Shown here piece by piece: positions 22,592 through 33,590 of a DNA stretch of 64,000 bases. Where the stretch lies: positions 1,144,001 to 1,208,000 of the forward strand of contig NZ_CP031155.1 of the NCBI RefSeq assembly GCF_003344885.1, read 5' to 3'. Origin of the DNA: Altererythrobacter sp. ZODW24. GTDB taxonomy: Bacteria; Pseudomonadota; Alphaproteobacteria; Sphingomonadales; Sphingomonadaceae. A model generated the notes under the pieces. That model saw only the letters and a program-made list of their open reading frames with translations. It was not told where the DNA came from and made no database searches. The position numbers and the translations under genes were made by a program. Every line of letters begins with the position of its first letter. Positions within the stretch are counted from its first letter, which is position 1.

Positions 22592-22678
22592 GCGGTCGTG
22601 GCGGAACTGGTAGACGCGCAACGTTGAGGTCGTTGTGGCCGAAAGGCCGTGGAAGTTCGAGTCTTCTCGACCGCACCA
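22592..22678 (+). tRNA. tRNA-Leu (anticodon GAG)
   Basis: An 87-base leucine tRNA with encoded CCA. The acceptor arms GCGGTCG (22592-22598) and CGACCGC (22668-22674) pair fully. The anticodon stem CAACG/CGTTG encloses the loop TTGAGGT, giving anticodon GAG for CUC/CUU codons. A long variable arm (GGCCGAAAGGCC) fits class II tRNA-Leu, and the T arm holds GTTCGAGTC. Its 3' end is repeated at 22863, so it appears to be an integration target. Confidence 0.96.
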
Positions 22679-22862
22679 AACAGTCGTTAAGTAGTTGATT
22701 TAGAAGAACTTTTTAGAAAGTGAGCCTGTCACTAAGCGATGGCCATAGCAACGCTGACTCCCTTCTTTTCTCAAAGAATCTTGCTCACGATTCCACAATC
22801 GTAATTTTGTGATCAAACAGAATCATAAAGTGAAAAATGTGGTGGGTATTCTTGTCATCATT

Positions 22863-22889
22863 GAGTCTTCTCGGGAGCACCAAACAGTC
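22863..22889 (+). repeat. Att-like direct repeat of the tRNA-Leu 3' end
   Basis: GAGTCTTCTCG, three variable bases and GCACCAAACAGTC recur here exactly as at 22659-22685, where they are the T-arm/acceptor end and flank of tRNA-Leu(GAG). That is 24 of 27 bases identical at the same spacing, 204 bases apart. Such a duplication is what site-specific integration into a tRNA 3' end leaves behind. The recombinase remnant begins 295 bases further on. Confidence 0.7.
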
Positions 22890-23084
22890 CTGAATGGACT
22901 TCAAAACATCGCTGGATGATAGACTGCTGCATTGAAGCGCGCAGTTCTGCGGCGCTTTGGGCGTAGAACGAATTCGACTGTGGTCAGAGACTGCAGCTCG
23001 ACCATCGAGAAATTGCCCCAATTATCGAGAGAAGTCTCAGTGGTTTGAGGCAGTGACCGCAATGGCGGAACCGAGGTCAAACTA

Positions 23085-23152
23085 AACGTCTGCTTTGCGC
23101 CCTCGTTTCAGCCGTAACGACCCAATTTCTTAGCGACCGAAAGCGGACGTTC
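23085..23152. repeat. Dispersed hairpin repeat, complex copy upstream of the recombinase remnant
   Basis: The outer arms AACGTCTGCTTT and GAAAGCGGACGTT pair with few mismatches around a core that holds CGACCCAATTTC, the reverse of the TTGGGTCG centre of other copies. It looks like two or more units nested or fused. It ends 32 bases before the recombinase start codon. Confidence 0.55.
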
Positions 23153-23183
23153 TTCGAGGCCATTCCGGCTAAGGAGAAAACCA

Positions 23184-23825
23184 ATGACATAGTCGCAATT
23201 TGATCCCGCAGCTCAGAATTGAGTTCCGTGGAATTTAGGCGCAAAGACTGGCCCCAAACGACCGTTCACCCAGAAACAAATCTGGGCAATCCGTTTCTTT
23301 CTTGATCGTGAAAAGCGCATTCGTGATCGGGCGCTCTTTGATCTGGCAATCGAAAGCAAACTGCGAGGCTGTGATCTTGTGGGACTAAAAATTGGCGATC
23401 TTGTCAGCGGGCCAGACATTCGGAGGCGTGCCGCGATCACCCAGCGCAAGACTGGCAGGCCCGTCCAGTTTGAGGTCGCAGCTGATGCGTGTGATAGTTT
23501 GTTCGCATGCCTCGAACTTCGAGGCGGCTCAGTTGAGGACTTTGTATTCCCCAGTCGGATCGATCATTCACGACATTTGAGCACACGCCAGTAAGCACGA
23601 CTAGTCGATGAATGGGTCGAAGCTATTGGTCTTAGAACTGAGGAATATGGAACCCATTCGCTTCGACGAACAAAAGCGTCGATCATCTACAAGGCGACTG
23701 GCAATATTCGAGCAATCCAAATTCTGCTTGGCCATTCGAACATTGAGAACACCGTCCGTTACCTAGGTGTCGACATAGCAGATGCACTTGACCTAGCGTC
23801 TCGAACTTGGGCGCAACGCCGATAA
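23184..23825 (+). pseudogene. Tyrosine recombinase (integrase) with three in-frame stop codons
   Basis: One frame of 213 codons reads as a small (about 200-residue) site-specific tyrosine recombinase, but has TAG at codon 3 (23190), TGA at codon 13 (23220) and TAA at codon 137 (23592). There is no frameshift. Readable family parts are RPFTQKQIWAIRFFLDRE, the first catalytic Arg in SKLRGCDLVGLKIGDLV, Lys in TQRKTGRPVQFEV, then STRQ-stop-ARLVDEW, the HxxR box THSLRRTKAS, and LLGHSNIENTVRYLGVD with the late His and nucleophile Tyr. The TAA replaces the Tyr usual in STRQYARL. AAGGAGA lies eight bases before the ATG. Catalytic residues survive, so decay is recent. Confidence 0.88.
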
Positions 23826-23852
23826 TCTCTAGAAAAGTTCAAACAGTGTGAT

Positions 23853-23925
23853 CCGATTTCGCCAACCGTCCCGCTGTTAGCATTAGGAGGGGGATGAGGT
23901 TTGCATGATCCCCTAGCGAAATCGG
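23853..23925 (+). promoter_or_regulatory. Nested inverted repeats in the leader of the 23936 operon
   Basis: A perfect ten-base inverted repeat, CCGATTTCGC (23853-23862) and GCGAAATCGG (23916-23925), encloses a second one, GGGGAT (23890-23895) and ATCCCC (23908-23913). The outer right arm runs into the GGGGG that serves as ribosome binding site for the ATG at 23936. A four-codon reading frame (ATG 23894, M-R-F-A-stop) preceded by AGGAGG lies inside. The layout could hide or expose the ribosome binding site. It could also be a recombination site left beside the integrase. Confidence 0.5.
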
Positions 23926-23935
23926 GGGTTATTCT

Positions 23936-24838
23936 ATGCGATTCCATCTATCCAAGCTTGCTATGTGCTGCGCTACCGCACTCGCTATTTCGGCAGGCAC
24001 TTCGGCCATGGCCGAGACGCATGTGGCAGTTCCAGCAAGCGCGGCAGATCAGATTGCCGAACTCCCCACAGGAGACCAACTTGTGTTGGAAGAGTTTTCC
24101 GGAACTCTGCCGTTTGCCGGGCAAGAACTGCAGCTCGAATCGTTCACCGGCTTGCTCGGGTATTCGGCTGAAGTCGCTTATGTCGTCAATGCAGGTGGCA
24201 CGGTCAGAGCCGATGGTAAGCTTGCGCGCACCGGGCGTATGTTGCTGATTGCACCATTTGGGCGGGGAATAGTAAGCGAGCGCTTTGACGCCGCGCGCCT
24301 TCACGACAGTCTTTCTTCATCGCCTAATGCGAGCACTATGCAGGGCATCCTCCCCCGGCTTGAAGATCTGGCCCGCGGGCAACAACGCGGTGTCTTTCTC
24401 GGTCGCCTTGGGCGGACGAATTTCAACGTCGCGACTTTAGGGTCAGGCGAGGCAGAAGTGGACCGGCGCAGCCGGATAGGCGGCACAGCGGTCCGTGAAG
24501 CGCGCTTTGCGGCTCCCACGGCCGGCGTCGCGACGGAGCAAGCCATCGTCGAAAGATTCATGTCCGCTCTGGCGCGCAAAGATCCGGCCGCTGTGAGCCA
24601 ATTCCTAGACCCGTTGCCCTACGGGTACAGCAATCTCGAACAAGGCGGCGATGCCGCGCGTACTGCGATGGCCGCATCTTTGATTGCCCGCCACGATTGG
24701 AACCATTTTGCCGCGCGCCAAATATCCCAATCGGGCGAAACCAGTTGGACCGTACAAGGCACGGGACTGCGAGCAGTGATTGAGCTGCGTCGCACAGCAG
24801 ATTTTGCCTTCGTCCAATCCATCAAGGTGGAAGAATGA
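23936..24838 (+). CDS. Secreted protein, first gene of the giant-protein operon
   Basis: A 300-residue protein with a Sec signal peptide (MRFHLSKLAMCCATALAISAGTSAMA, cut before ETHV). I recognise no family for the first 200 residues, which contain a beta-rich part (LVLEEFSGTLPFAGQELQLESFTGLLGYSAEVAYVV). The last 100 (EQAIVERFMSALARKDPAAVSQFLDP...) resemble an NTF2/SnoaL-like cone fold by pattern only. The stop overlaps the start of the giant protein gene (ATGA), so both are made together. The leader before it carries nested inverted repeats. Confidence 0.75.
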   Translation: MRFHLSKLAMCCATALAISAGTSAMAETHVAVPASAADQIAELPTGDQLVLEEFSGTLPFAGQELQLESFTGLLGYSAEVAYVVNAGGTVRADGKLARTGRMLLIAPFGRGIVSERFDAARLHDSLSSSPNASTMQGILPRLEDLARGQQRGVFLGRLGRTNFNVATLGSGEAEVDRRSRIGGTAVREARFAAPTAGVATEQAIVERFMSALARKDPAAVSQFLDPLPYGYSNLEQGGDAARTAMAASLIARHDWNHFAARQISQSGETSWTVQGTGLRAVIELRRTADFAFVQSIKVEE

Positions 24839-27800
24839 CAATGACCAACCAAACACTCCGTTTTCGCCAAATCCTGAAATCCAGCGTCGCGATTGCGATC
24901 TTGGCCTGTCTCACGACCCCGCTTGCCGCGGAAGAGCGCGAGGAGGCGCCGTCTGGTGACGCCACCGCGCAGTCTCCTGCGGTAATCGCGGTGCAATCTG
25001 CACCCCAGGTCGCATCAATCGAGGAGCGACAGAGCTATGCGTTACGGCTGATGACCCAAGTCTATAATGGCACACGCGATTTATCGCACACGCAGATGCT
25101 TGGCGTCGGCCGTATCCGCAAGGGTAATCGCAGCATCAGCCGGTTCGACTATGGTGACGGCGCGGTTGTGATCGCGCCCGACGTCGGTCAGATCGCCGCC
25201 AGTCGCTTTATGAACGTAAGCGGGACTGAAAAGCAGATTGTCTACAATTACGATACGAAATTGATTCACGGCGACCCGGAGATTGCGGCTTTTCACAATT
25301 CACTTGTCCGCCCGTGGCTCGGAAATGGACCGCATCTCGGCCAAGACGCAAGCTGGGTTCAGAATGTACCCTTGTCGGCGCTTGGAATGCCGACAGTTAG
25401 CGGCGAGAGTATAAGGATCGAACTGAGCCGTACCTATTTTACCCATCAAGGTAAGCCGATGGTTTTGGTTCAATATGACATACCCGCCTTCAGCTACGAC
25501 GCAGGGGCAGGCAAGATGCTGGTCCAATGGGGCCGCGGAATCGCATTGACCGATCCGGGTTTCGGTATGATCTATCTCAATGCAACGCTGCAACGTGCAG
25601 TGGAAACGCGTAACGGCACACCCGGCAAACCTTATCGCTTCGCCCGCAACATGGTCGCTGCCAATCCCGACGGTTCCGCGATGATTGACTATCGTGAAGT
25701 CGAACAGCTGCGCGGGCTGATAGAGCCTATCTTGGGGGCCGACGCGATGATGATCGTGCCGGTTGGCTCGGATGATGAGCGCGCTGATGGTCGCCCACTG
25801 GAACTCGGCCGCCGGCTAGACTTACTGGCGCTGAGTATCGGTGAAAATGGTGCGAATGAGGTACCAATGGCTGCAGGTGTCCAAGGCGCCAGCGGCCGTG
25901 GGAATGAAGTGGCTGGAGCAATCGGCGCTAGGGCAATGACCAATGGCGGCGGGGTTTTTGTAAGCAGTCAAGGCACCAGAGGCCGCGATCTAGTTGCGGA
26001 GGAAGTCACCGACCAGCAGGCCGCGTCCGGCAATGCCGAAGATGCCGGCGGACGCAGTGACGGGGGCGTTGATTCACTTGGGGCGAGGGCGATGACCGAC
26101 GGAGCGATGCCGTTCGGGTCGAGTCAAGATACCAGTGGCAGGACTGTATTAGCGGACGAAGCGGTCGATCAGCAAAGCTCAGCGACAGGCGATCCAGACT
26201 TCGATTTGTCGCCCGAAATGCTGGAAAGATTGGAGCAGTCAACTCAGAGTGGCGACCTCGTCAGTGATGCTTTTGATCGCGTTCGTGGTGGTGGGGGCGA
26301 CGCGGCTTTCGGAAACCAAGATCCGTCAACCGAGGGCTATGCTGGCCCATCGACGCTGGACGTGGTCGATGGCACCGGACAAGTTCTAAAACCGGTTTTG
26401 GGCTATGCTGATAAAGCTAACGCAATCACGAACGGTGTTTTGGCCACGGAGACCATTAGGCTCACCAATCTAGCCAATGATGTTGGCAGCAAAATCAATG
26501 CGGCGGGCGAATCCTATCGGCAGGCAACAGTCGCGTTGAAGAACTCTGGCGCGATGAAATTGACACTGATGCCTGGGGCCGAGCTCCTATTGGACACCTA
26601 CAACCAAACTACAGGTGAGCTGGGCGATCTCGAGCAAAGAATAAACTCGCTATCCTCCTATCTCTCTGATTTGACCAAGCAAGGGGCCGCAATTCCACCA
26701 GAGTCAATTGCGGAGACGAGCAAGCTCGTCAGTCAATACAACATCCTGTATGATAAGGCAGAGGCGCAATATAGGGCCTTTCAAGGCGTGAGTAACAAAT
26801 ACGTCGCTGTATTTGATGATACAGATCCAACTACCGCCAGACTTTTGAAAAGAGTGGAAGAGCGCGCTAGTGACCTTTACGCGCTCGAAAAAGTTGCTGT
26901 TACTTTGGAAAGGGACGCTAGCGCCCTTCAAAAACTCGCCCGCCAACTGCCAGTCGAGCAATTGCAGGATGTGCTGAAGAGATTTGGCGATTCACCCTAC
27001 GGCAAAGTGCTCGACGGCGTCAGCCACGGAATGAACGGCTTTACGGTCGGTCAGTCGCTCTACAACATCGTTGATGCTTCATCGAATGACAAAAGTTCCG
27101 GCCAGCTGAACCTTACACGCGATCACGGGCTTAGCTCGCTTGTTCTCGATCTCACCTCATTGGCAGGCAATGCCGTCAGCGGAAATGTTTCCGCCTTTTT
27201 GAGCGATGCAACCGCTATCACCTTCGGCTCGGTCAGCGATATCATCTTGTCGGGAAAGGCGCTGAAGGACACTCATCAGTTGAACGCCAGACTGCTTCAA
27301 CAGTCACGTGAGATGGATCAGCGCCTATCAGATATGCGACACGAGAAGATCGCTAATCTCGGTGACTTTCTCGATGACGTCGGCACCGATTTGAGCGCGC
27401 TGGATCAGGAAATTGACGACTCCGTCCAGAGATCCAAAGATCTTCTAGAAGAGCGCCGCCAAGCGCGAGCTGAACTCGCGCGTCAGGAGCAGGACGAACA
27501 AGATGGCCAGCAACTGGCATCGGCTGGCCGTGAGGCGGAGAACGAACGAAGAAGGACAGCCAATGATCGGCTGAATAATGACCTCAAGCACAATTACCCA
27601 ACAGTCGACCCAAGCACGATCAAGGTCGTGAAAAAGGACGAGGGCGAGTATGATGGACCGCCGCCTTCGATCTTGCCGCCCGCAACGATAGCCGCGATCG
27701 AGCGTGAGCAGCGTCGGCAGGAAGCCCAAGACAAGCTCGATGCGCAATATGAGGCGGACTGGAATGCTAAAGGCCTGCCGCCTCTGGACACTTTCGTGAA

Positions 27801-29424
27801 CGCAGAAGAGCGGGAGGCGGCTGCGCAAGCTTGGCTCGATACTCGATACGAGGCTGATCGCAAGGCGAAGGGTTTGCCAGACCTCGACACATTCGCCACA
27901 GCCGAGGAGCGCGCAGTCGCCTCGCAAGCTCGTCTCGACGCCGAATATGAGGCTGACCGAAAAGCCAAGGGCTTACCGGCCCTCGACACTTTTGCGACGG
28001 CTGAAGAACGCAAGGCGGCGTCGCAGGCATGGTTGGAAGCCCAGTATGAAGCTGATCGCAAAGCTAGAGGAATCCCAGACGCCGATAGATATGCGAACGC
28101 CGACGAACGGGGGGCAGTTGAACAGGCCAAATTGAACGCAAAGTACCAGGCGGCCTGGGAGGAACGGGGGCTGCCTTACCTCGACAATTTCGCGACCGCA
28201 GAGGAACGCAAGGAAGCGGCCGAGGCGAAGCTGAAGGAATATCAGGACAAAAAATTCGCCGAGCAGAAAGCCGACGAGGTCGCAAAAGCAAAGCAACCTG
28301 GAACCTATGAGTTCCGCACGAGCAAGCTTGAAACTTCGGAACTGGTGGTCAGTGAATTCGGCATCGAGCCGATCACGTTCGAAGAGGTGAATTTTGAAAT
28401 ACCTGTATTCGATAAGGACAACGACCTGTTCGACGAGGACGGCAATCTCAAGAAAGTTGGGCCAGACGATTTCGTGATGACCCCATTCGATCCGCCAGAG
28501 GCGAGTAAGTTCCCGCCAACTGATCCAGATGATCTTGATGGATATCCCGGAACCGGCGAATATCCCGCTTTCAGTTTTGAGAGCATGTCCGGCACAGTTG
28601 AGACTAAGTTAGACAGGTGGGAAGAATGGCTTGCGACCCAAGATGTCCGTAAGCTCACTCAGTTGGCGTTAGCGGCAGGCTATCCCAATTTGGCTTCAGC
28701 TTTGGCCGATGCAGAAAACATCATCCGTATGTCTCAGGATGAAGGGTATCGGAGATGGGCAAGAACTGCCCCTAGCTGTACCGGTTCTAACGGCTGTGGT
28801 CCTCAATATCTGGAGCGCTGGGCGATGAAACGATCAATCGTCGGACTGGGGGACATTCTTGCGCAGAGTCGCGGAATTTTCTCCTCTGGGGGCTTCACAG
28901 ATATCGGCGTCTCAGGCTTCAACCTGATGTATGTCCTGCGCGATTTTGGTATCCAGGATGGGGATTTGATTGATGTCGAGATTAGCCAGTTCGGACGAGT
29001 GATCGGTCAGTTGAAGGGTCACTTCCTGCTTACTGCAGGCAGCCCGTTCAATGTCCGACTGCGTCCAGGTGTCGCCCAGATGGTCATCTCCGCGCTCAAT
29101 GAAGGCTCAGCATCTCCCAATACCGCCGAAGTCACGATTCAAAACGTTGTACGCGGCGATGGACGGCAAACCTACTCGCTTGAAACGGGTCAAACAGCAG
29201 TTCTGCGTATTGAAGCGGGGGCCACCGGTGGAAGCATGCAATCCTCAAGCAATGGTGGTCAAGGAACATCGGCGCTGTCAGGTACAGTCACTTCGGCAGC
29301 AGGATCACGCATTGGCTCGCCAGGCGTTCAGGGAGCTCCGCCGGAGCGTCGACCTGCCCCACCGTCTAGGCCAGCGGCCCCACACATGCGCGACCCTAAC
29401 GGCCCGCGTCCTGACATCCGCTAA
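24835..29424 (+). CDS. Giant secreted repeat protein, unknown function
   Basis: A 1,529-residue protein that I cannot assign. A signal peptide (hydrophobic run SVAIAILACLTTPLAA, then EE) marks export. In order: a globular part (about 60-330) with LGVGRIRKGNRSISRFDYGDG; a Gly/Ala-rich part with a duplicated GARAMT..SSQ.T.GR motif 52 residues apart (363 and 415); a long helical part (about 500-720); a hydrophobic Gly/Ala/Ser stretch (about 760-810); a charged coiled coil; five 33-residue repeats (957-1121); a C-terminal part with the cysteines SCTGSNGCG and a beta-rich domain near 1350-1470; and a Pro/Arg-rich tail. It lies between a secreted protein and a beta-barrel gene. Confidence 0.85.
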   Translation: MTMTNQTLRFRQILKSSVAIAILACLTTPLAAEEREEAPSGDATAQSPAVIAVQSAPQVASIEERQSYALRLMTQVYNGTRDLSHTQMLGVGRIRKGNRSISRFDYGDGAVVIAPDVGQIAASRFMNVSGTEKQIVYNYDTKLIHGDPEIAAFHNSLVRPWLGNGPHLGQDASWVQNVPLSALGMPTVSGESIRIELSRTYFTHQGKPMVLVQYDIPAFSYDAGAGKMLVQWGRGIALTDPGFGMIYLNATLQRAVETRNGTPGKPYRFARNMVAANPDGSAMIDYREVEQLRGLIEPILGADAMMIVPVGSDDERADGRPLELGRRLDLLALSIGENGANEVPMAAGVQGASGRGNEVAGAIGARAMTNGGGVFVSSQGTRGRDLVAEEVTDQQAASGNAEDAGGRSDGGVDSLGARAMTDGAMPFGSSQDTSGRTVLADEAVDQQSSATGDPDFDLSPEMLERLEQSTQSGDLVSDAFDRVRGGGGDAAFGNQDPSTEGYAGPSTLDVVDGTGQVLKPVLGYADKANAITNGVLATETIRLTNLANDVGSKINAAGESYRQATVALKNSGAMKLTLMPGAELLLDTYNQTTGELGDLEQRINSLSSYLSDLTKQGAAIPPESIAETSKLVSQYNILYDKAEAQYRAFQGVSNKYVAVFDDTDPTTARLLKRVEERASDLYALEKVAVTLERDASALQKLARQLPVEQLQDVLKRFGDSPYGKVLDGVSHGMNGFTVGQSLYNIVDASSNDKSSGQLNLTRDHGLSSLVLDLTSLAGNAVSGNVSAFLSDATAITFGSVSDIILSGKALKDTHQLNARLLQQSREMDQRLSDMRHEKIANLGDFLDDVGTDLSALDQEIDDSVQRSKDLLEERRQARAELARQEQDEQDGQQLASAGREAENERRRTANDRLNNDLKHNYPTVDPSTIKVVKKDEGEYDGPPPSILPPATIAAIEREQRRQEAQDKLDAQYEADWNAKGLPPLDTFVNAEEREAAAQAWLDTRYEADRKAKGLPDLDTFATAEERAVASQARLDAEYEADRKAKGLPALDTFATAEERKAASQAWLEAQYEADRKARGIPDADRYANADERGAVEQAKLNAKYQAAWEERGLPYLDNFATAEERKEAAEAKLKEYQDKKFAEQKADEVAKAKQPGTYEFRTSKLETSELVVSEFGIEPITFEEVNFEIPVFDKDNDLFDEDGNLKKVGPDDFVMTPFDPPEASKFPPTDPDDLDGYPGTGEYPAFSFESMSGTVETKLDRWEEWLATQDVRKLTQLALAAGYPNLASALADAENIIRMSQDEGYRRWARTAPSCTGSNGCGPQYLERWAMKRSIVGLGDILAQSRGIFSSGGFTDIGVSGFNLMYVLRDFGIQDGDLIDVEISQFGRVIGQLKGHFLLTAGSPFNVRLRPGVAQMVISALNEGSASPNTAEVTIQNVVRGDGRQTYSLETGQTAVLRIEAGATGGSMQSSSNGGQGTSALSGTVTSAAGSRIGSPGVQGAPPERRPAPPSRPAAPHMRDPNGPRPDIR
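27703..28197 (+). repeat. Five tandem 99-bp repeats coding 33-residue helical units
   Basis: Units start at 27703, 27802, 27901, 28000 and 28099, with a partial sixth from 28198. The consensus is AEERxAASQAxLDAxYEADR followed by KAKGLPxLDTFAT. Each is a charged helix, a Gly-Leu-Pro turn and a short DTFAT linker. The inner units are most alike, the outer ones more divergent, as expected for growth by unequal recombination. Confidence 0.92.
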
Positions 29425-29443
29425 ACCTTCAAGGAAGAAACCG

Positions 29444-30388
29444 ATGATGAAACATACTTTCACCGCGATCGCCCTTGTCACTCTGGCGAACTTGGGAACT
29501 ACTTCCGCGTTCGCTCAGGCGGTTCCGGATATCGACGATGCGATCAACCGTAGCACCAGCATTGACGAATCTCTTCGCGGCCAGGAGCGGACTACTCCGC
29601 GCTTTGATGGCGACGAAGATGGCGAGATCGCGGGTGAGGCCGGGATATTTGTGCTGAGTAAGAACGAAATATTCTATATCGGCGCTGCCGTTGGCACTGG
29701 CTGGGCAGAAAATCCGCTCAGGACGGCTGATGATGTCGGCGACTCATTCTATGCTAATGCCGCGTTCACAGCTGGTTTGCAGACCAAGATTGCTGAAGCC
29801 TTCGATTTCGGCCTCGCTGCTACAGTCTCAGGAACCGAATATGATGCGGCATTTGCACCGTCTTCGCGGACGCTGAATGTTTCGACAAATTTGGGAAGTC
29901 CTATCAAGGGAACACCACTTTATGTCGGTGGAGGCATCTATGGTGGGTTTAGTTATGATGGCAATTTTGAGCGTGGAACGGGCTTCTACGGCGCAAACGT
30001 AGCACTCAGCGCTGGCGGCCCAATTGGTCCGAAGACTCTTGCTCGCGCCAGCCTATCAGCTGTTCGTTCGGGCAATGAAATCAGCGATAACGATGCCTGG
30101 AGTGGAAATTTTGACATAGCCATTACCCAAATCGTTGCCCCCAAAGTGACGATCGGAGCGCAGACCCGTTTGAGCTATTTCGTGTATGATGATTTCTTCG
30201 AAGACGTGACCTTTGTAGAACGGCAGGATTGGCAGATTGGCGGTAATGTCAATGCCAATTGGTCGCCGCTTGATTGGCTTAGCGTATCGGTCTCAGCCGG
30301 TTATCAGAAGCGTGATAGCCGCTTCTTCTTATCCGATTATGACGGGTTCGAAACAGCACTGACGATCGCCGCTCGTAAGCGATTTTAA
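29444..30388 (+). CDS. Outer-membrane beta-barrel protein
   Basis: A 314-residue protein with a signal peptide (MMKHTFTAIALVTLANLGTTSAFA, cut before QAVPD), a short acidic segment, then about 250 residues of alternating polar/hydrophobic beta strands with Gly/aromatic patterning (FYIGAAVGTGWAENP, YVGGGIYGGFSYDGNF, LSVSVSAGYQKRDSR) and a C-terminal ARKRF, a terminal phenylalanine as in barrels recognised by BamA. AAGGAAG precedes the start. The same frame is open further upstream but that overlaps the giant gene. It is 20 bases after that gene, so it is the third gene of the operon and may anchor or export its product. Confidence 0.82.
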   Translation: MMKHTFTAIALVTLANLGTTSAFAQAVPDIDDAINRSTSIDESLRGQERTTPRFDGDEDGEIAGEAGIFVLSKNEIFYIGAAVGTGWAENPLRTADDVGDSFYANAAFTAGLQTKIAEAFDFGLAATVSGTEYDAAFAPSSRTLNVSTNLGSPIKGTPLYVGGGIYGGFSYDGNFERGTGFYGANVALSAGGPIGPKTLARASLSAVRSGNEISDNDAWSGNFDIAITQIVAPKVTIGAQTRLSYFVYDDFFEDVTFVERQDWQIGGNVNANWSPLDWLSVSVSAGYQKRDSRFFLSDYDGFETALTIAARKRF

Positions 30389-30406: not shown

Positions 30407-32785
30407 TCAGCCGTTGCAGCGCTTGAGAGCGACTTGCAATGGCTCGATACTGTTTTGCTGATCAACCGAAGAAATCTCAGCGCGCTCAGCCAAGGCATCC
30501 CATTCAGCGCGCGCGATGCGAAAGGCGTCACAGGCAGCCTTCGTCCGGCCAGTCTCTTCGAGCGTGTCAGCCAGCGTCTGGCGCGCAGTAATACGCTCTC
30601 GCAGGTAGCCCATATTGTTCGGCTCGCCGGCCAGTTTCTTGCTGCGCGCGGCGAAGGAACGTCGAGCCAAAGCGATGGCATCGTCATTTCTATTGAGTGC
30701 GAGCAAAACATAGATTTTCTGAGAGTGAATTGTGTCTAACCTCGATCGGGAGCCAGCATCATCCGGGTCACGACGAATGACGATATCGAGCAGCGCCTCG
30801 GCCTCTTCCAAATCCGCCAGAGCGTCTCTGGATCGGTTGATATCATTGTAGACTAACGAGCGCCTGAACAGAGCCGCGATCAGGCCCAATCTCCGGTCAT
30901 TGCGCTGCGCTTCGGGCCCATCGCGATACAGCTTCAGAGTGATGTCGTACGCCCTGCTGAGCGGAGGCAAGGAGGTCACAAAAGCCTCGCTTTCAACTGG
31001 ATAAGTCCACGACCTTGTGTAGCCAAGCTCCGAATTGACACTCGCTAATGCAACGAGTGCATCAGTCGAATTCTCAACGGTTGCGGGATCCTCTTCGATC
31101 TCGGCAACGAGAACTTCGAGTAGCTTGACGCCTTCTTCACCTTTCTCAACCCAGACAAGCGGTTTGGCCGCCTGCAATCGAGAGCGATACCAAGCAAGTC
31201 GATACGCGGTCGTTCCCGGGTCGGTTTCCATCAGGCTGCGATAGAGTTCAACCGAACGATTGCCGGCAACAATCGCGCCGTCATTGTCGTCATCAGCTAT
31301 GAACAGAAAGATCGAATTAGAATAAAACGCTTCAGCTAGTGCTTGGGTGTAATCTGGATCGCTGGCATCTTCCGCGTGCAATTGCTCAAGATCGAAAATT
31401 GCTCGATCGAGGGATAAGCGTGCCTCTTCCCTTCGACCCAGATTCGCGCCTTCGGGATTACCTAATACAGTCGATAGCCGATGATACCCGCGCGCAATCT
31501 CTAGCCTCAAGCCCGGCTCGAGGTCATCACCGGCACTCAGCCGTTCAAGATAGGTGCTGGCTTCGTCGGCAATCTGTGACAAAGCCTTGGTGTTGCCGGA
31601 GACTGGCTCTAGTTCATCATAAAGGTCGAAGAGCATGAATTTGGCGATCCCCCGCACCTCAGTGAATCGATCGTCAGCTTGGTCACGGGCGACCACTGCT
31701 TCCTGCCACCACCAACCTGTTGCGCCTGCTCCTACGAAAGTCGCAACTACAAGCGCTGCGGCGACGCTTGCCAAAAGTTGATTGCGGCTGACCCATTTGC
31801 GAAATCGATAGCTGATCGTGCCCGGATGCGCTCGGACGGGGCGACCATTGAGGTAAAGACGGATGTCCTCGGCCAACCGGTCCATCGCCAAATAGCGTTG
31901 CTCGGGTTGCTGGGCAGTCGCTTTGGCAATCATAGCATCAAGCTCGGCGGATCTGGGAGACGGAACGATCTCTTCGAGCATTCTGCCGGCCGAATAGATG
32001 TCACCTAGAACGGTGGTTGCTCCACCAGATGCCCTTTCCGGCGCTGCGTATCCAGGTGTCATGGTCACTGCGCGGATTGGCCTTGCTGTGCCAGGCGTGA
32101 CCTCCTCACCATCCGGTCGAGCAATTCCGAAATCAATCAGCTTCACCTGGCTATCGGTCCCGACTAGAACGTTCGATGGCGTCAAATCGCGATGGACGAT
32201 TAGATTGCGATGTGCATATCCAGCTGCCTCGCAGACCTGCAAAAACAACCGGAGCTTTTCCTCCACTGAGCGGACCTGCGCGTTGATCCAAGCTAGTAGC
32301 GGTATCCCGTCCACTCGTTCCATAACAATATATGGCTGCCCGTCCTCGGTGGCACCACCATCTAGCAAGCGTGTGATATTGGGGTGACTCAGTCGAGCAA
32401 GGATCTGTCGTTCACGATTAAATCGGTCAACCAACCGCTCGGATAGAATTCCAGGCTTGATCAGCTTGATGGCGACGCTGTGCTCGAAATCGCCCTCTTC
32501 GCGCTCAGCTGCATAGACGGTGCCCATACCGCCCGAGCCAATCGTGCCCGTAATGCGATAGGCACCAATCCTCTCAGGCGGCGGCAACGGATCGGCAGTT
32601 TCGATTGCCGCGCCGGTTTGAATGATTGGATCGGTATCAGCTTGCCAGATTTCGGTTACTCGTTGGTGCAGCGCATCGTCGCCGAGGGTCTGTTCTCCCA
32701 ACCAGTGCTCGCGCTTATCCTCGGCAATGTCGAGCATCGCTTCAAACAGAGTCAGGGCTCGGCGTTCAAGGCCGATATCACTCAT
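30407..32785 (-). CDS. Membrane-anchored Ser/Thr protein kinase with C-terminal helical repeats
   Basis: A 792-residue PknB-type kinase. The kinase domain (about residues 70-320) shows the glycine loop GSGGMGTVYAA, the ATP lysine in VAIKLIKPG, the catalytic loop HRDLTPSNVLV, DFG in LIDFGIARP and TPGYAAPE. The catalytic-loop residue that is normally Lys (HRDLKPxN) is Thr. A single membrane span follows (about 343-365, LVVATFVGAGATGWWW), then about 420 residues of TPR-like helices that would be periplasmic. The start overlaps the sigma factor gene by eight bases. It converges on the beta-barrel gene with 18 bases between. Confidence 0.92.
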   Translation of the reverse strand: MSDIGLERRALTLFEAMLDIAEDKREHWLGEQTLGDDALHQRVTEIWQADTDPIIQTGAAIETADPLPPPERIGAYRITGTIGSGGMGTVYAAEREEGDFEHSVAIKLIKPGILSERLVDRFNRERQILARLSHPNITRLLDGGATEDGQPYIVMERVDGIPLLAWINAQVRSVEEKLRLFLQVCEAAGYAHRNLIVHRDLTPSNVLVGTDSQVKLIDFGIARPDGEEVTPGTARPIRAVTMTPGYAAPERASGGATTVLGDIYSAGRMLEEIVPSPRSAELDAMIAKATAQQPEQRYLAMDRLAEDIRLYLNGRPVRAHPGTISYRFRKWVSRNQLLASVAAALVVATFVGAGATGWWWQEAVVARDQADDRFTEVRGIAKFMLFDLYDELEPVSGNTKALSQIADEASTYLERLSAGDDLEPGLRLEIARGYHRLSTVLGNPEGANLGRREEARLSLDRAIFDLEQLHAEDASDPDYTQALAEAFYSNSIFLFIADDDNDGAIVAGNRSVELYRSLMETDPGTTAYRLAWYRSRLQAAKPLVWVEKGEEGVKLLEVLVAEIEEDPATVENSTDALVALASVNSELGYTRSWTYPVESEAFVTSLPPLSRAYDITLKLYRDGPEAQRNDRRLGLIAALFRRSLVYNDINRSRDALADLEEAEALLDIVIRRDPDDAGSRSRLDTIHSQKIYVLLALNRNDDAIALARRSFAARSKKLAGEPNNMGYLRERITARQTLADTLEETGRTKAACDAFRIARAEWDALAERAEISSVDQQNSIEPLQVALKRCNG

Positions 32786-33401
32786 CGCGCAGTGGCCTCA
32801 ACAATGCGTCGGCCAGCCACGCGCGAGCAACCTGCCAACGCCGCTTAACAGTTGGTTCTGACCAACCCTTAACTTGTGCAATGTCACTCACGGTCATCCC
32901 GCCAAAATAGCGCATCTCGACAATCTCCGCGAAGCTCGGATCAATGGCTTCCAATCTGATTAGCGCGGAATCCAGCAAATGCAGATCAGTGGGAGGTACT
33001 CCAACAAGGTTTGTCCGCAGTTCGACTTTCTGATGTGCACGCTTACCTGAGTTTCTAGATCTCGCTTGATCAACGAGAACATTTCGCATGAGCCGGGAAA
33101 CCAAGGCGAGCAAATGGGCGCGATCGTTGATCGTGGGCTCCGCGGCCATGATTCTAAGCATTGCTTCGTTGATAAGGTCGTTGGTGGAAAGCGAGCTCAT
33201 CATTTCATTGCGAAGCCGCGCCACAGCTATCTGCTCCAACTCGGGCAGGACGCGTGCGACGAGCTGGTCACGGGCCGAGAGGCTTCCACTGCGCCAGTTG
33301 AGAATCAGCCTTTGCGTCTCCAACTTGTATTCTCTCCCGCTGTCTGACGCATTGGAAATGCTCTTACCGCGAGGATACAAATTTCGCAGTTTAGGGTGCA
33401 T
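32778..33401 (-). CDS. ECF-type RNA polymerase sigma factor paired with the kinase
   Basis: An extracytoplasmic-function sigma factor of the kind found next to Ser/Thr kinases (the TIGR02999-like group). Region 2 is in LSARDQLVARVLPELEQIAVARLRN..LINEAMLRI and MRNVLVDQARSR; region 4 is EIVEMRYFGGMTVSDIAQVKGWSEPTVKRRWQ, a clear helix-turn-helix. No anti-sigma gene is adjacent; the kinase gene overlaps its end by eight bases. In Vibrio parahaemolyticus an ECF of this type is switched on by phosphorylation by its kinase. The start is uncertain: ATG 33401 is used, while TTG 33323 has a better GGGAGAG site and fits the fold. Confidence 0.88.
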   Translation of the reverse strand: MHPKLRNLYPRGKSISNASDSGREYKLETQRLILNWRSGSLSARDQLVARVLPELEQIAVARLRNEMMSSLSTNDLINEAMLRIMAAEPTINDRAHLLALVSRLMRNVLVDQARSRNSGKRAHQKVELRTNLVGVPPTDLHLLDSALIRLEAIDPSFAEIVEMRYFGGMTVSDIAQVKGWSEPTVKRRWQVARAWLADALLRPLRDE

Positions 33402-33453
33402 GTATGCGGCAGGTTGGAGCGAAATGTAAACGCTGCACCATCGCGGCTTCACG

Positions 33454-33485: not shown

Positions 33486-33535
33486 GACCCTATGATCTAA
33501 ACACCCGCTTCAATGTAACATGACTTACTTCTTGA

Positions 33536-33574
33536 TGTCCGGTGAACCAGACACTATGTCCGGTAAACCAGACA
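33536..33574 (+). promoter_or_regulatory. Two tandem 18-bp palindromes, likely operator of the HTH operon
   Basis: TGTCCGGTGAACCAGACA (33536-33553) and TGTCCGGTAAACCAGACA (33557-33574) are near-identical imperfect palindromes (TGTCCGGT against TGTCTGGT) with centres 21 bases apart, about two helical turns. They end 17 bases before the first gene of an operon that encodes its own helix-turn-helix protein at 34211. That arrangement suggests autoregulation by two dimers on one face of the DNA. Confidence 0.65.
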
Positions 33575-33590
33575 CGGAGATCGTTAGCCG

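What the first reader, a model, noticed from the sequence alone, without database searches (positions are those of the whole stretch)
23936..30388. Three-gene operon for a 1,529-residue secreted repeat protein with its own beta-barrel
A secreted protein, a giant secreted protein with duplicated segments and five 33-residue repeats, and an outer-membrane barrel are coupled (ATGA overlap, then 20 bases). None of the first two matches a family I know. The order suggests a cell-surface assembly: the barrel anchors or secretes the giant protein and the small one assists. This is the strongest candidate here for an undescribed system.
Basis: partly seen in the sequence, partly recalled or inferred. 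Interest (0 to 1): 0.75.

Follow-up and report, generated by a model that had tools for sequence, protein, structure and literature searches.

The report
Kinase-sigma controlled giant surface-protein operon
Three bacterial genes for a small exported protein, a giant exported protein and an outer-membrane barrel form a real, rare and scattered unit that a neighbouring kinase and sigma factor very probably switch on, in a regulatory slot that in relatives drives other kinds of surface proteins.

Summary
The operon is real: g1 (300 aa, 23936-24838), g2 (1,529 aa, 24835-29424, five 33-residue repeats), g3 (314-aa barrel, 29444-30388). g1 and g2 match no Pfam, NCBIfam, PHROGs or PDB sequence family; g3 is at the edge of Pfam BBP2_2. 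The same g1-g2-g3 order occurs in five other scattered alphaproteobacteria, but only 4 of 398 sampled genomes of the order carry it. All six operons carry TGAHCCRWTT-N13-CGCYK before g1 with identical spacing. The motif also precedes autotransporter-cluster giants, a laminin-G giant and a PEP-CTERM-like protein beside related sigma-kinase pairs. Identities of g1-g3 correlate with each other but not with those of sigma or kinase, so regulators seem exchangeable. Best explanation: a kinase-activated sigma factor induces an envelope assembly in which g2 is the giant component, g3 its outer-membrane partner and g1 a FecR-like/NTF2-like accessory. The regulatory link is well supported computationally; surface display of g2 through g3 is inferred. 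The 33-residue repeats are private to this allele.

The parts
23849..23876 (+). Predicted ECF sigma promoter TGATCCGATT-N13-CGCTG, 59 bases before g1
   Evidence: Same spacing in all six loci; matrix recovers other surface-protein genes near related sigma-kinase pairs
23936..24838 (+). g1: 300-aa exported protein, FecR-like beta domain (about 48-116) and NTF2-like domain (about 194-300)
24835..29424 (+). g2: 1,529-aa exported protein; conserved N domain (about 60-345), variable helical middle, conserved C domain (about 1160-1464)
27724..28218 (+). Five 33-residue repeats (g2 residues 964-1128), private to this allele
   Evidence: DNA array also seen
29444..30388 (+). g3: 314-aa outer-membrane beta-barrel, C-terminal Phe, borderline BBP2_2
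30407..32785 (-). Transmembrane Ser/Thr kinase (kinase domain about 74-274, TM near 337, weak TPR matches in the C-terminal part)
   Evidence: adjoining the operon in five of six loci
32778..33452 (-). ECF sigma factor, TIGR02999 (Sig-70_X6)
   Evidence: 152.7 bits, cut-off 126.15
23270..23825 (+). Decayed tyrosine-recombinase remnant behind tRNA-Leu (22592-22678); insertion context, not part of the machinery

Best explanation
A mobile, signal-induced envelope module. A transmembrane Ser/Thr kinase senses something outside the cytoplasm and activates, probably by phosphorylation, a TIGR02999 ECF sigma factor. The sigma factor recognises TGAHCCRWTT-N13-CGCYK in front of g1 and transcribes g1-g2-g3 as one operon. 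All three products leave the cytoplasm by Sec. g3 inserts in the outer membrane as a beta-barrel; g2, the giant protein, is the structural or binding component, held to or displayed at the outer membrane through g3; g1 (FecR-like plus NTF2-like) is a periplasmic accessory. Supported by computation here: the operon, its co-conservation, the link to the sigma-kinase pair, the promoter motif. Inferred: activation by phosphorylation (by analogy with EcfP/PknT and EcfK/PknS), the topology of g2, the g2-g3 contact, the surface function.
For: Same gene order in six genomes. Sigma and kinase adjoin it in five of six, in differing arrangements, so not simple synteny. TIGR02999 sigma above cut-off in 40 of 398 genomes of the order but in all 4 that carry g1 (P about 9e-4 leaving out the window's genome); one copy per genome in the four tested. 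Motif in 6/6 upstream regions, score 59 of 75 against a shuffle maximum of 52. A matrix built only from the g1 promoters finds sites 28-191 bases before three giants of an autotransporter cluster and one laminin-G giant beside related sigma-kinase pairs, and 56 bases before a PEP-CTERM-like protein beside the sigma nearest the window's; 23 hits against 6 in a reversed control. g1, g2, g3 identities correlate with each other (Spearman 0.66-0.90). Kinases keep glycine loop, HRD, DFG and one TM segment.
Against: In one genome the sigma-kinase pair is not beside the operon. The module's sigmas are not one clade, and g1-g3 identities do not track those of sigma or kinase. The sigma2.2 motif S/A-T-x-D/E is not the phospho-accepting QTTA/STTA of ECF43, so phosphorylation may act elsewhere or not at all. 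The g2 model has mean pLDDT 41; nothing shows that g2 crosses the outer membrane. No expression data.
Confidence: 0.6

Rival explanations
1. g2 stays in the periplasm: an envelope scaffold or lipid-binding protein with a LolA/lipovitellin-like N domain that works with g3 (a porin-like barrel) in moving or sensing envelope lipids under stress; nothing is displayed outside.
For: N domain of the g2 model resembles lipovitellin (Z 9.6) and LolA-like proteins; g3 resembles porin-like BBP2_2; ECF sigma factors often serve envelope stress (general knowledge).
Against: Low-confidence model, and porins score close; other targets of the motif are surface or exported proteins; the most conserved part of g2 is its C domain, not the N domain.
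Confidence: 0.25
2. g3 is a dedicated secretion pore and g2 its released or surface-bound substrate, as in type V secretion with a split barrel.
For: Giant exported protein with a tightly coupled barrel gene in all loci; the same regulatory slot holds true autotransporters elsewhere.
Against: No POTRA, TPS or autotransporter domain in any of the orthologues; g3 is a 314-aa protein without extra domains, and nothing shows it passes proteins.
Confidence: 0.15
3. The sigma-kinase pair and the operon are neighbours by chance on mobile DNA, and the operon is transcribed by another factor.
For: Pair unlinked in G300; sigmas polyphyletic; no correlation of identities.
Against: Adjacency in five of six loci in different arrangements, co-occurrence in 4 of 4 genomes against a 10% background, and an ECF-like motif shared with other genes near pairs of the same subclade.
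Confidence: 0.1

Closest known systems
ECF43 sigma-kinase systems (Vibrio EcfP/PknT, Xanthomonas EcfK/PknS; PMC8999054, PMC13147305)
   Same: ECF sigma gene paired with a transmembrane Hanks-type kinase; the sigma2.2 acidic motif is altered and holds Ser/Thr
   Different: Motif S/A-T-x-D/E keeps one acidic residue instead of QTTA/STTA; predicted target is an exported three-protein operon, not a T6SS or a polymyxin-resistance regulon
Autotransporters (type Va) beside related sigma-kinase pairs in the same order
   Same: Giant exported protein near a TIGR02999 sigma-kinase pair, with the same promoter motif in L120, L124 and L138
   Different: Barrel is a separate gene (g3), no PF03797 in g2, extra protein g1
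Laminin-G giant proteins with OEP/HlyD genes beside sigma-kinase pairs (L117, L127)
   Same: Giant protein in the same regulatory slot; motif found in L127
   Different: OEP/HlyD genes suggest type I export; g1-g2-g3 have Sec signal peptides and no such genes beside them
FecR-type periplasmic domains
   Same: g1 N-terminal beta domain resembles putative anti-sigma factor BDI_1681 (4m0h, 4m0n)
   Different: No FecR Pfam match; a signal peptide instead of a cytoplasmic anti-sigma part; joined to an NTF2-like domain
BBP2_2 putative beta-barrel porins (PF10082), EpsL (TIGR03014)
   Same: C-terminal part of g3 matches weakly
   Different: Only one orthologue exceeds the Pfam cut-off; no exopolysaccharide gene within the operon

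Membership tests
TIGR02999 (Sig-70_X6) ECF sigma factor | score above the curated cut-off of 126.15 bits | tested here: met
   152.7 bits
ECF43 phospho-activated sigma factors | gene next to a transmembrane Ser/Thr kinase | tested here: met
   Overlapping genes 30407-33452
ECF43 phospho-activated sigma factors | sigma2.2 motif QTTA/STTA with the second Thr phosphorylated, acidic DAED lost | tested here: not met
   STND, STHE, ATGD, STGD in the six sigmas: second Thr absent, one acidic residue kept (motif from PMC8999054 and PMC13147305)
ECF43 phospho-activated sigma factors | activated by phosphorylation | not testable with these tools
   needs biochemistry
FecR domain (Pfam) | Pfam match in g1 | tested here: not met
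   No FecR match for any of six g1 proteins at E up to 10
FecR domain (fold) | fold similarity to solved FecR-type domains | tested here: inconclusive
   Foldseek 4m0h/4m0n probability 1.0 but E about 5e-3, on a pLDDT-65 model
NTF2-like superfamily (g1 C-terminal domain) | cone-shaped alpha+beta fold | tested here: met
   Many NTF2-like chains, best Z 9.0 over 98 residues at 3.5 A; 4ovm Foldseek probability 1.0. Fold only, no function implied
BBP2_2 (PF10082) barrel | score above the Pfam cut-off of 23.7 | tested here: inconclusive
   26.5 bits for the L017 orthologue, 18.8 for the Emcibacteraceae one, no match for the window's g3
Autotransporter (type Va) | C-terminal PF03797 barrel on the giant protein | tested here: not met
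   No match in g2 or its orthologues
Two-partner secretion (type Vb) | POTRA/ShlB-FhaC barrel partner and TPS domain in the passenger | tested here: not met
   No such Pfam match in g3 or g2
Slam surface-lipoprotein translocon | SlipAM barrel with TPR domain and a lipoprotein cargo | tested here: not met
   SlipAM only at E 0.027 in one orthologue, no TPR match in g3; no lipobox seen in g1 or g2 (sequence)
LolA/LolB/lipovitellin-like lipid-binding fold (g2 N domain) | half-open beta barrel with helices | tested here: inconclusive
   Z 9.6 to 1lsh and 6.8 to LolA3, but the model is low-confidence and porins score close

The most novel reading that the evidence does not exclude
g1-g2-g3 is an undescribed way of building a giant protein at the Gram-negative surface (separate small barrel, FecR/NTF2-like helper, two-headed giant), and one subclade of kinase-activated ECF sigma factors is an exchangeable switch to which unrelated surface-protein systems (autotransporters, laminin-G giants, PEP-CTERM proteins, this trio) have been plugged in repeatedly.
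Probability: 0.3. Interest if true: 0.8.

Novelty: new variant of a known kind. Interest (0 to 1): 0.6.

Why it matters
Kinase-activated ECF sigma factors are known from very few studied cases, and most have no known target. Here a target operon and a predicted promoter can be read from sequence for a whole subclade, and the targets appear to be surface or exported proteins of several unrelated secretion types. That makes two questions testable: what these kinases sense, and whether alphaproteobacteria re-dress their surface by exchanging giant proteins under a common switch. g1 and g2 are also protein families for which none of the libraries searched holds a described member.

Tried and rejected
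Pfam, NCBIfam and PHROGs found no family for g1 or g2; PADLOC matched only the generic kinase domain, so a phage-defence reading has no support. PDB sequence profiles: nothing convincing. Plasmids and viral contigs: no relatives of the operon; one E 8e-4 hit in the repeat and helical part of g2 was dropped. Whole-g2 searches of many genomes failed twice on the server. A class-wide search with g1 found only the window's genome in 385, but scored at most five candidates per genome, so distant relatives may be missed. Marginal g1 hits in G065 and G544 and g3 hits in G185 and G144 were dropped: short and low identity, most inside much larger frames. Profiles of g1, g2 and g3 hit nothing in the other sigma-kinase neighbourhoods. 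A single origin of the module's sigmas was tested and rejected. No second copy of the tRNA-Leu 3' end was found in the window, so the island's far end is undefined. Motif hits inside sigma genes (L105, L111) look like coding conservation and are not counted as promoters.

Full report
In the four orthologous loci with an unsplit operon the gaps are equally tight, -4 to 12 bases. The five 33-residue repeats (g2 residues 964-1128) score 205 by autocorrelation against a shuffle maximum of 22, but no orthologue has them; a 52-residue duplication near residues 364 and 416 has a 56-residue counterpart in L017.

The trio is conserved and rare. It was found in Qipengyuania mesophila YG27 (L011/L020), an Emcibacteraceae MAG (L012/L019), an uncultured Sphingomonadaceae genome (L017), Aquisalinus flavus (L018) and genome G300 (split over contigs L013 and L026). 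g2 identity to the window is concentrated in an N domain (31-64%, residues about 60-345) and a C domain (62-72% in four orthologues, residues about 1160-1464), with a variable middle. Of 398 genomes drawn evenly from the order, four including the window's own have it; neither of two sampled genomes of its genus does. The window copy lies just past tRNA-Leu and a decayed tyrosine recombinase, and G+C falls from about 0.57 to 0.53-0.55 beyond it, all consistent with horizontal arrival.

On the opposite strand, converging on g3, lie a TIGR02999 ECF sigma factor and a transmembrane Ser/Thr kinase. The pair adjoins the trio in five of six loci, in different arrangements: converging behind g3 (window, Q. 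mesophila); sigma upstream of g1 on the same strand with the kinase diverging (L012, L018); behind g3 on the same strand (L017). In G300 the pair is on another contig. Each of four tested genomes has exactly one TIGR02999 sigma above cut-off; 40 of 398 genomes of the order have one, including all four with g1 (hypergeometric P 9e-5, or 9e-4 without the window's genome).

All six g1 upstream regions share TGAHCCRWTT-N13-CGCYK with identical spacing, beginning 38-90 bases before the annotated start. A simple test gives 59 of 75 matched letters against a maximum of 52 in 40 shuffled sets. With no mismatch the window's whole genome has one copy, in front of g1; the pattern was fitted to these sites, so that count is only descriptive. 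The independent test is a matrix made only from the g1 promoters and run over 779 kb around other sigma-kinase pairs: 23 hits against 6 in a reversed control. Among 184 genes near pairs of the same sigma subclade the strongest hits precede giants of one autotransporter cluster (L138, L120, L124) and a laminin-G giant (L127); among 393 genes near the other pairs there was one hit. L138 and L122 of that cluster carry PF03797. L136, whose sigma pairs with the window's in the tree (support 91/66), has the best hit, 56 bases before a protein with a PEP-CTERM-like tail. The split into subclades was made after seeing the hits, and two hits fall inside sigma genes.

The regulators appear exchangeable. 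Pairwise identities of g1, g2 and g3 rise and fall together over the six loci (Spearman 0.66-0.90), whereas those of sigma and kinase do not follow them (-0.16 to 0.26; the 15 pairs are not independent). The module's sigmas fall in several places of the tree, with at least three changes forced by well-supported branches. L017 shows it best: its g2 is close to the window's, but its sigma groups with those beside autotransporter giants.

Protein anatomy. g1: signal peptide, a beta domain resembling FecR-type domains (Foldseek probability 1.0, E about 5e-3) and an NTF2-like domain (Z 9.0) on a model of mean pLDDT 65. g2 was modelled through the 1,186-aa Aquisalinus orthologue: mean pLDDT 41, N domain mostly 50-80 with a long beta meander whose best structural neighbours include lipovitellin, ApoB and LolA-like proteins, but porins and autotransporter barrels come close. 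I take the lipid-binding idea as a lead only. g3: barrel with C-terminal Phe in all six and borderline BBP2_2 membership. A cysteine pair in the g2 C domain is present in five of six orthologues, which suits an exported protein.

Mechanism. By analogy with EcfP/PknT and EcfK/PknS (PMC8999054, PMC13147305) the kinase would activate the sigma factor. The sigma2.2 motif here, S/A-T-x-D/E, differs from the ECF43 motif, so membership of ECF43 is not claimed. The sigma-promoter-operon link is the best supported step. Surface display of g2 through g3 is an inference from the nature of the other targets and from the barrel gene.

Verdict: a real three-protein operon with its own predicted switch; a new variant of a known kind (a sigma-kinase-controlled surface protein system), with two protein families lacking a described member in the libraries searched.

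Noticed in passing
window 33535-33575: Two 21-base copies (ATGTCCGGTAAACCAGACACT), each nearly palindromic, just before a membrane-protein gene (33591) followed by an HTH_3 regulator (34211): looks like an operator pair of that regulator.
   Followed up: no
window 22592-23825: tRNA-Leu with a decayed tyrosine recombinase behind it, and a partial copy of the tRNA end (GAGTCTTCTCGGGAGCACCAAACAGTC) near 22863.
   Followed up: partly
L012 12729-13430 (+): In the Emcibacteraceae locus a 233-aa protein with the PPP-type Ser/Thr phosphatase motifs GDIHG, GDYVDRG and GNHE (read by eye) lies between g1 and the sigma gene: a possible opponent of the kinase.
   Followed up: no
L117 1-11929 and L127 7021-19901: Laminin-G/PPC giant proteins next to OEP-type (and in L127 HlyD) genes and a TIGR02999 sigma-kinase pair: a probable type I secreted giant under the same kind of switch.
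   Followed up: partly
L115 12641-16537 and L100 10567-11538: YadA-type trimeric autotransporters beside TIGR02999 sigma-kinase pairs of another sigma subclade.
   Followed up: partly
L136 12553-13239 (minus): PEP-CTERM-like exported protein preceded by the best motif hit outside the g1 operons.
   Followed up: partly
L120 2646-9287 and L124 4153-10929: 2,200-residue proteins of the autotransporter cluster without any Pfam match of their own.
   Followed up: no
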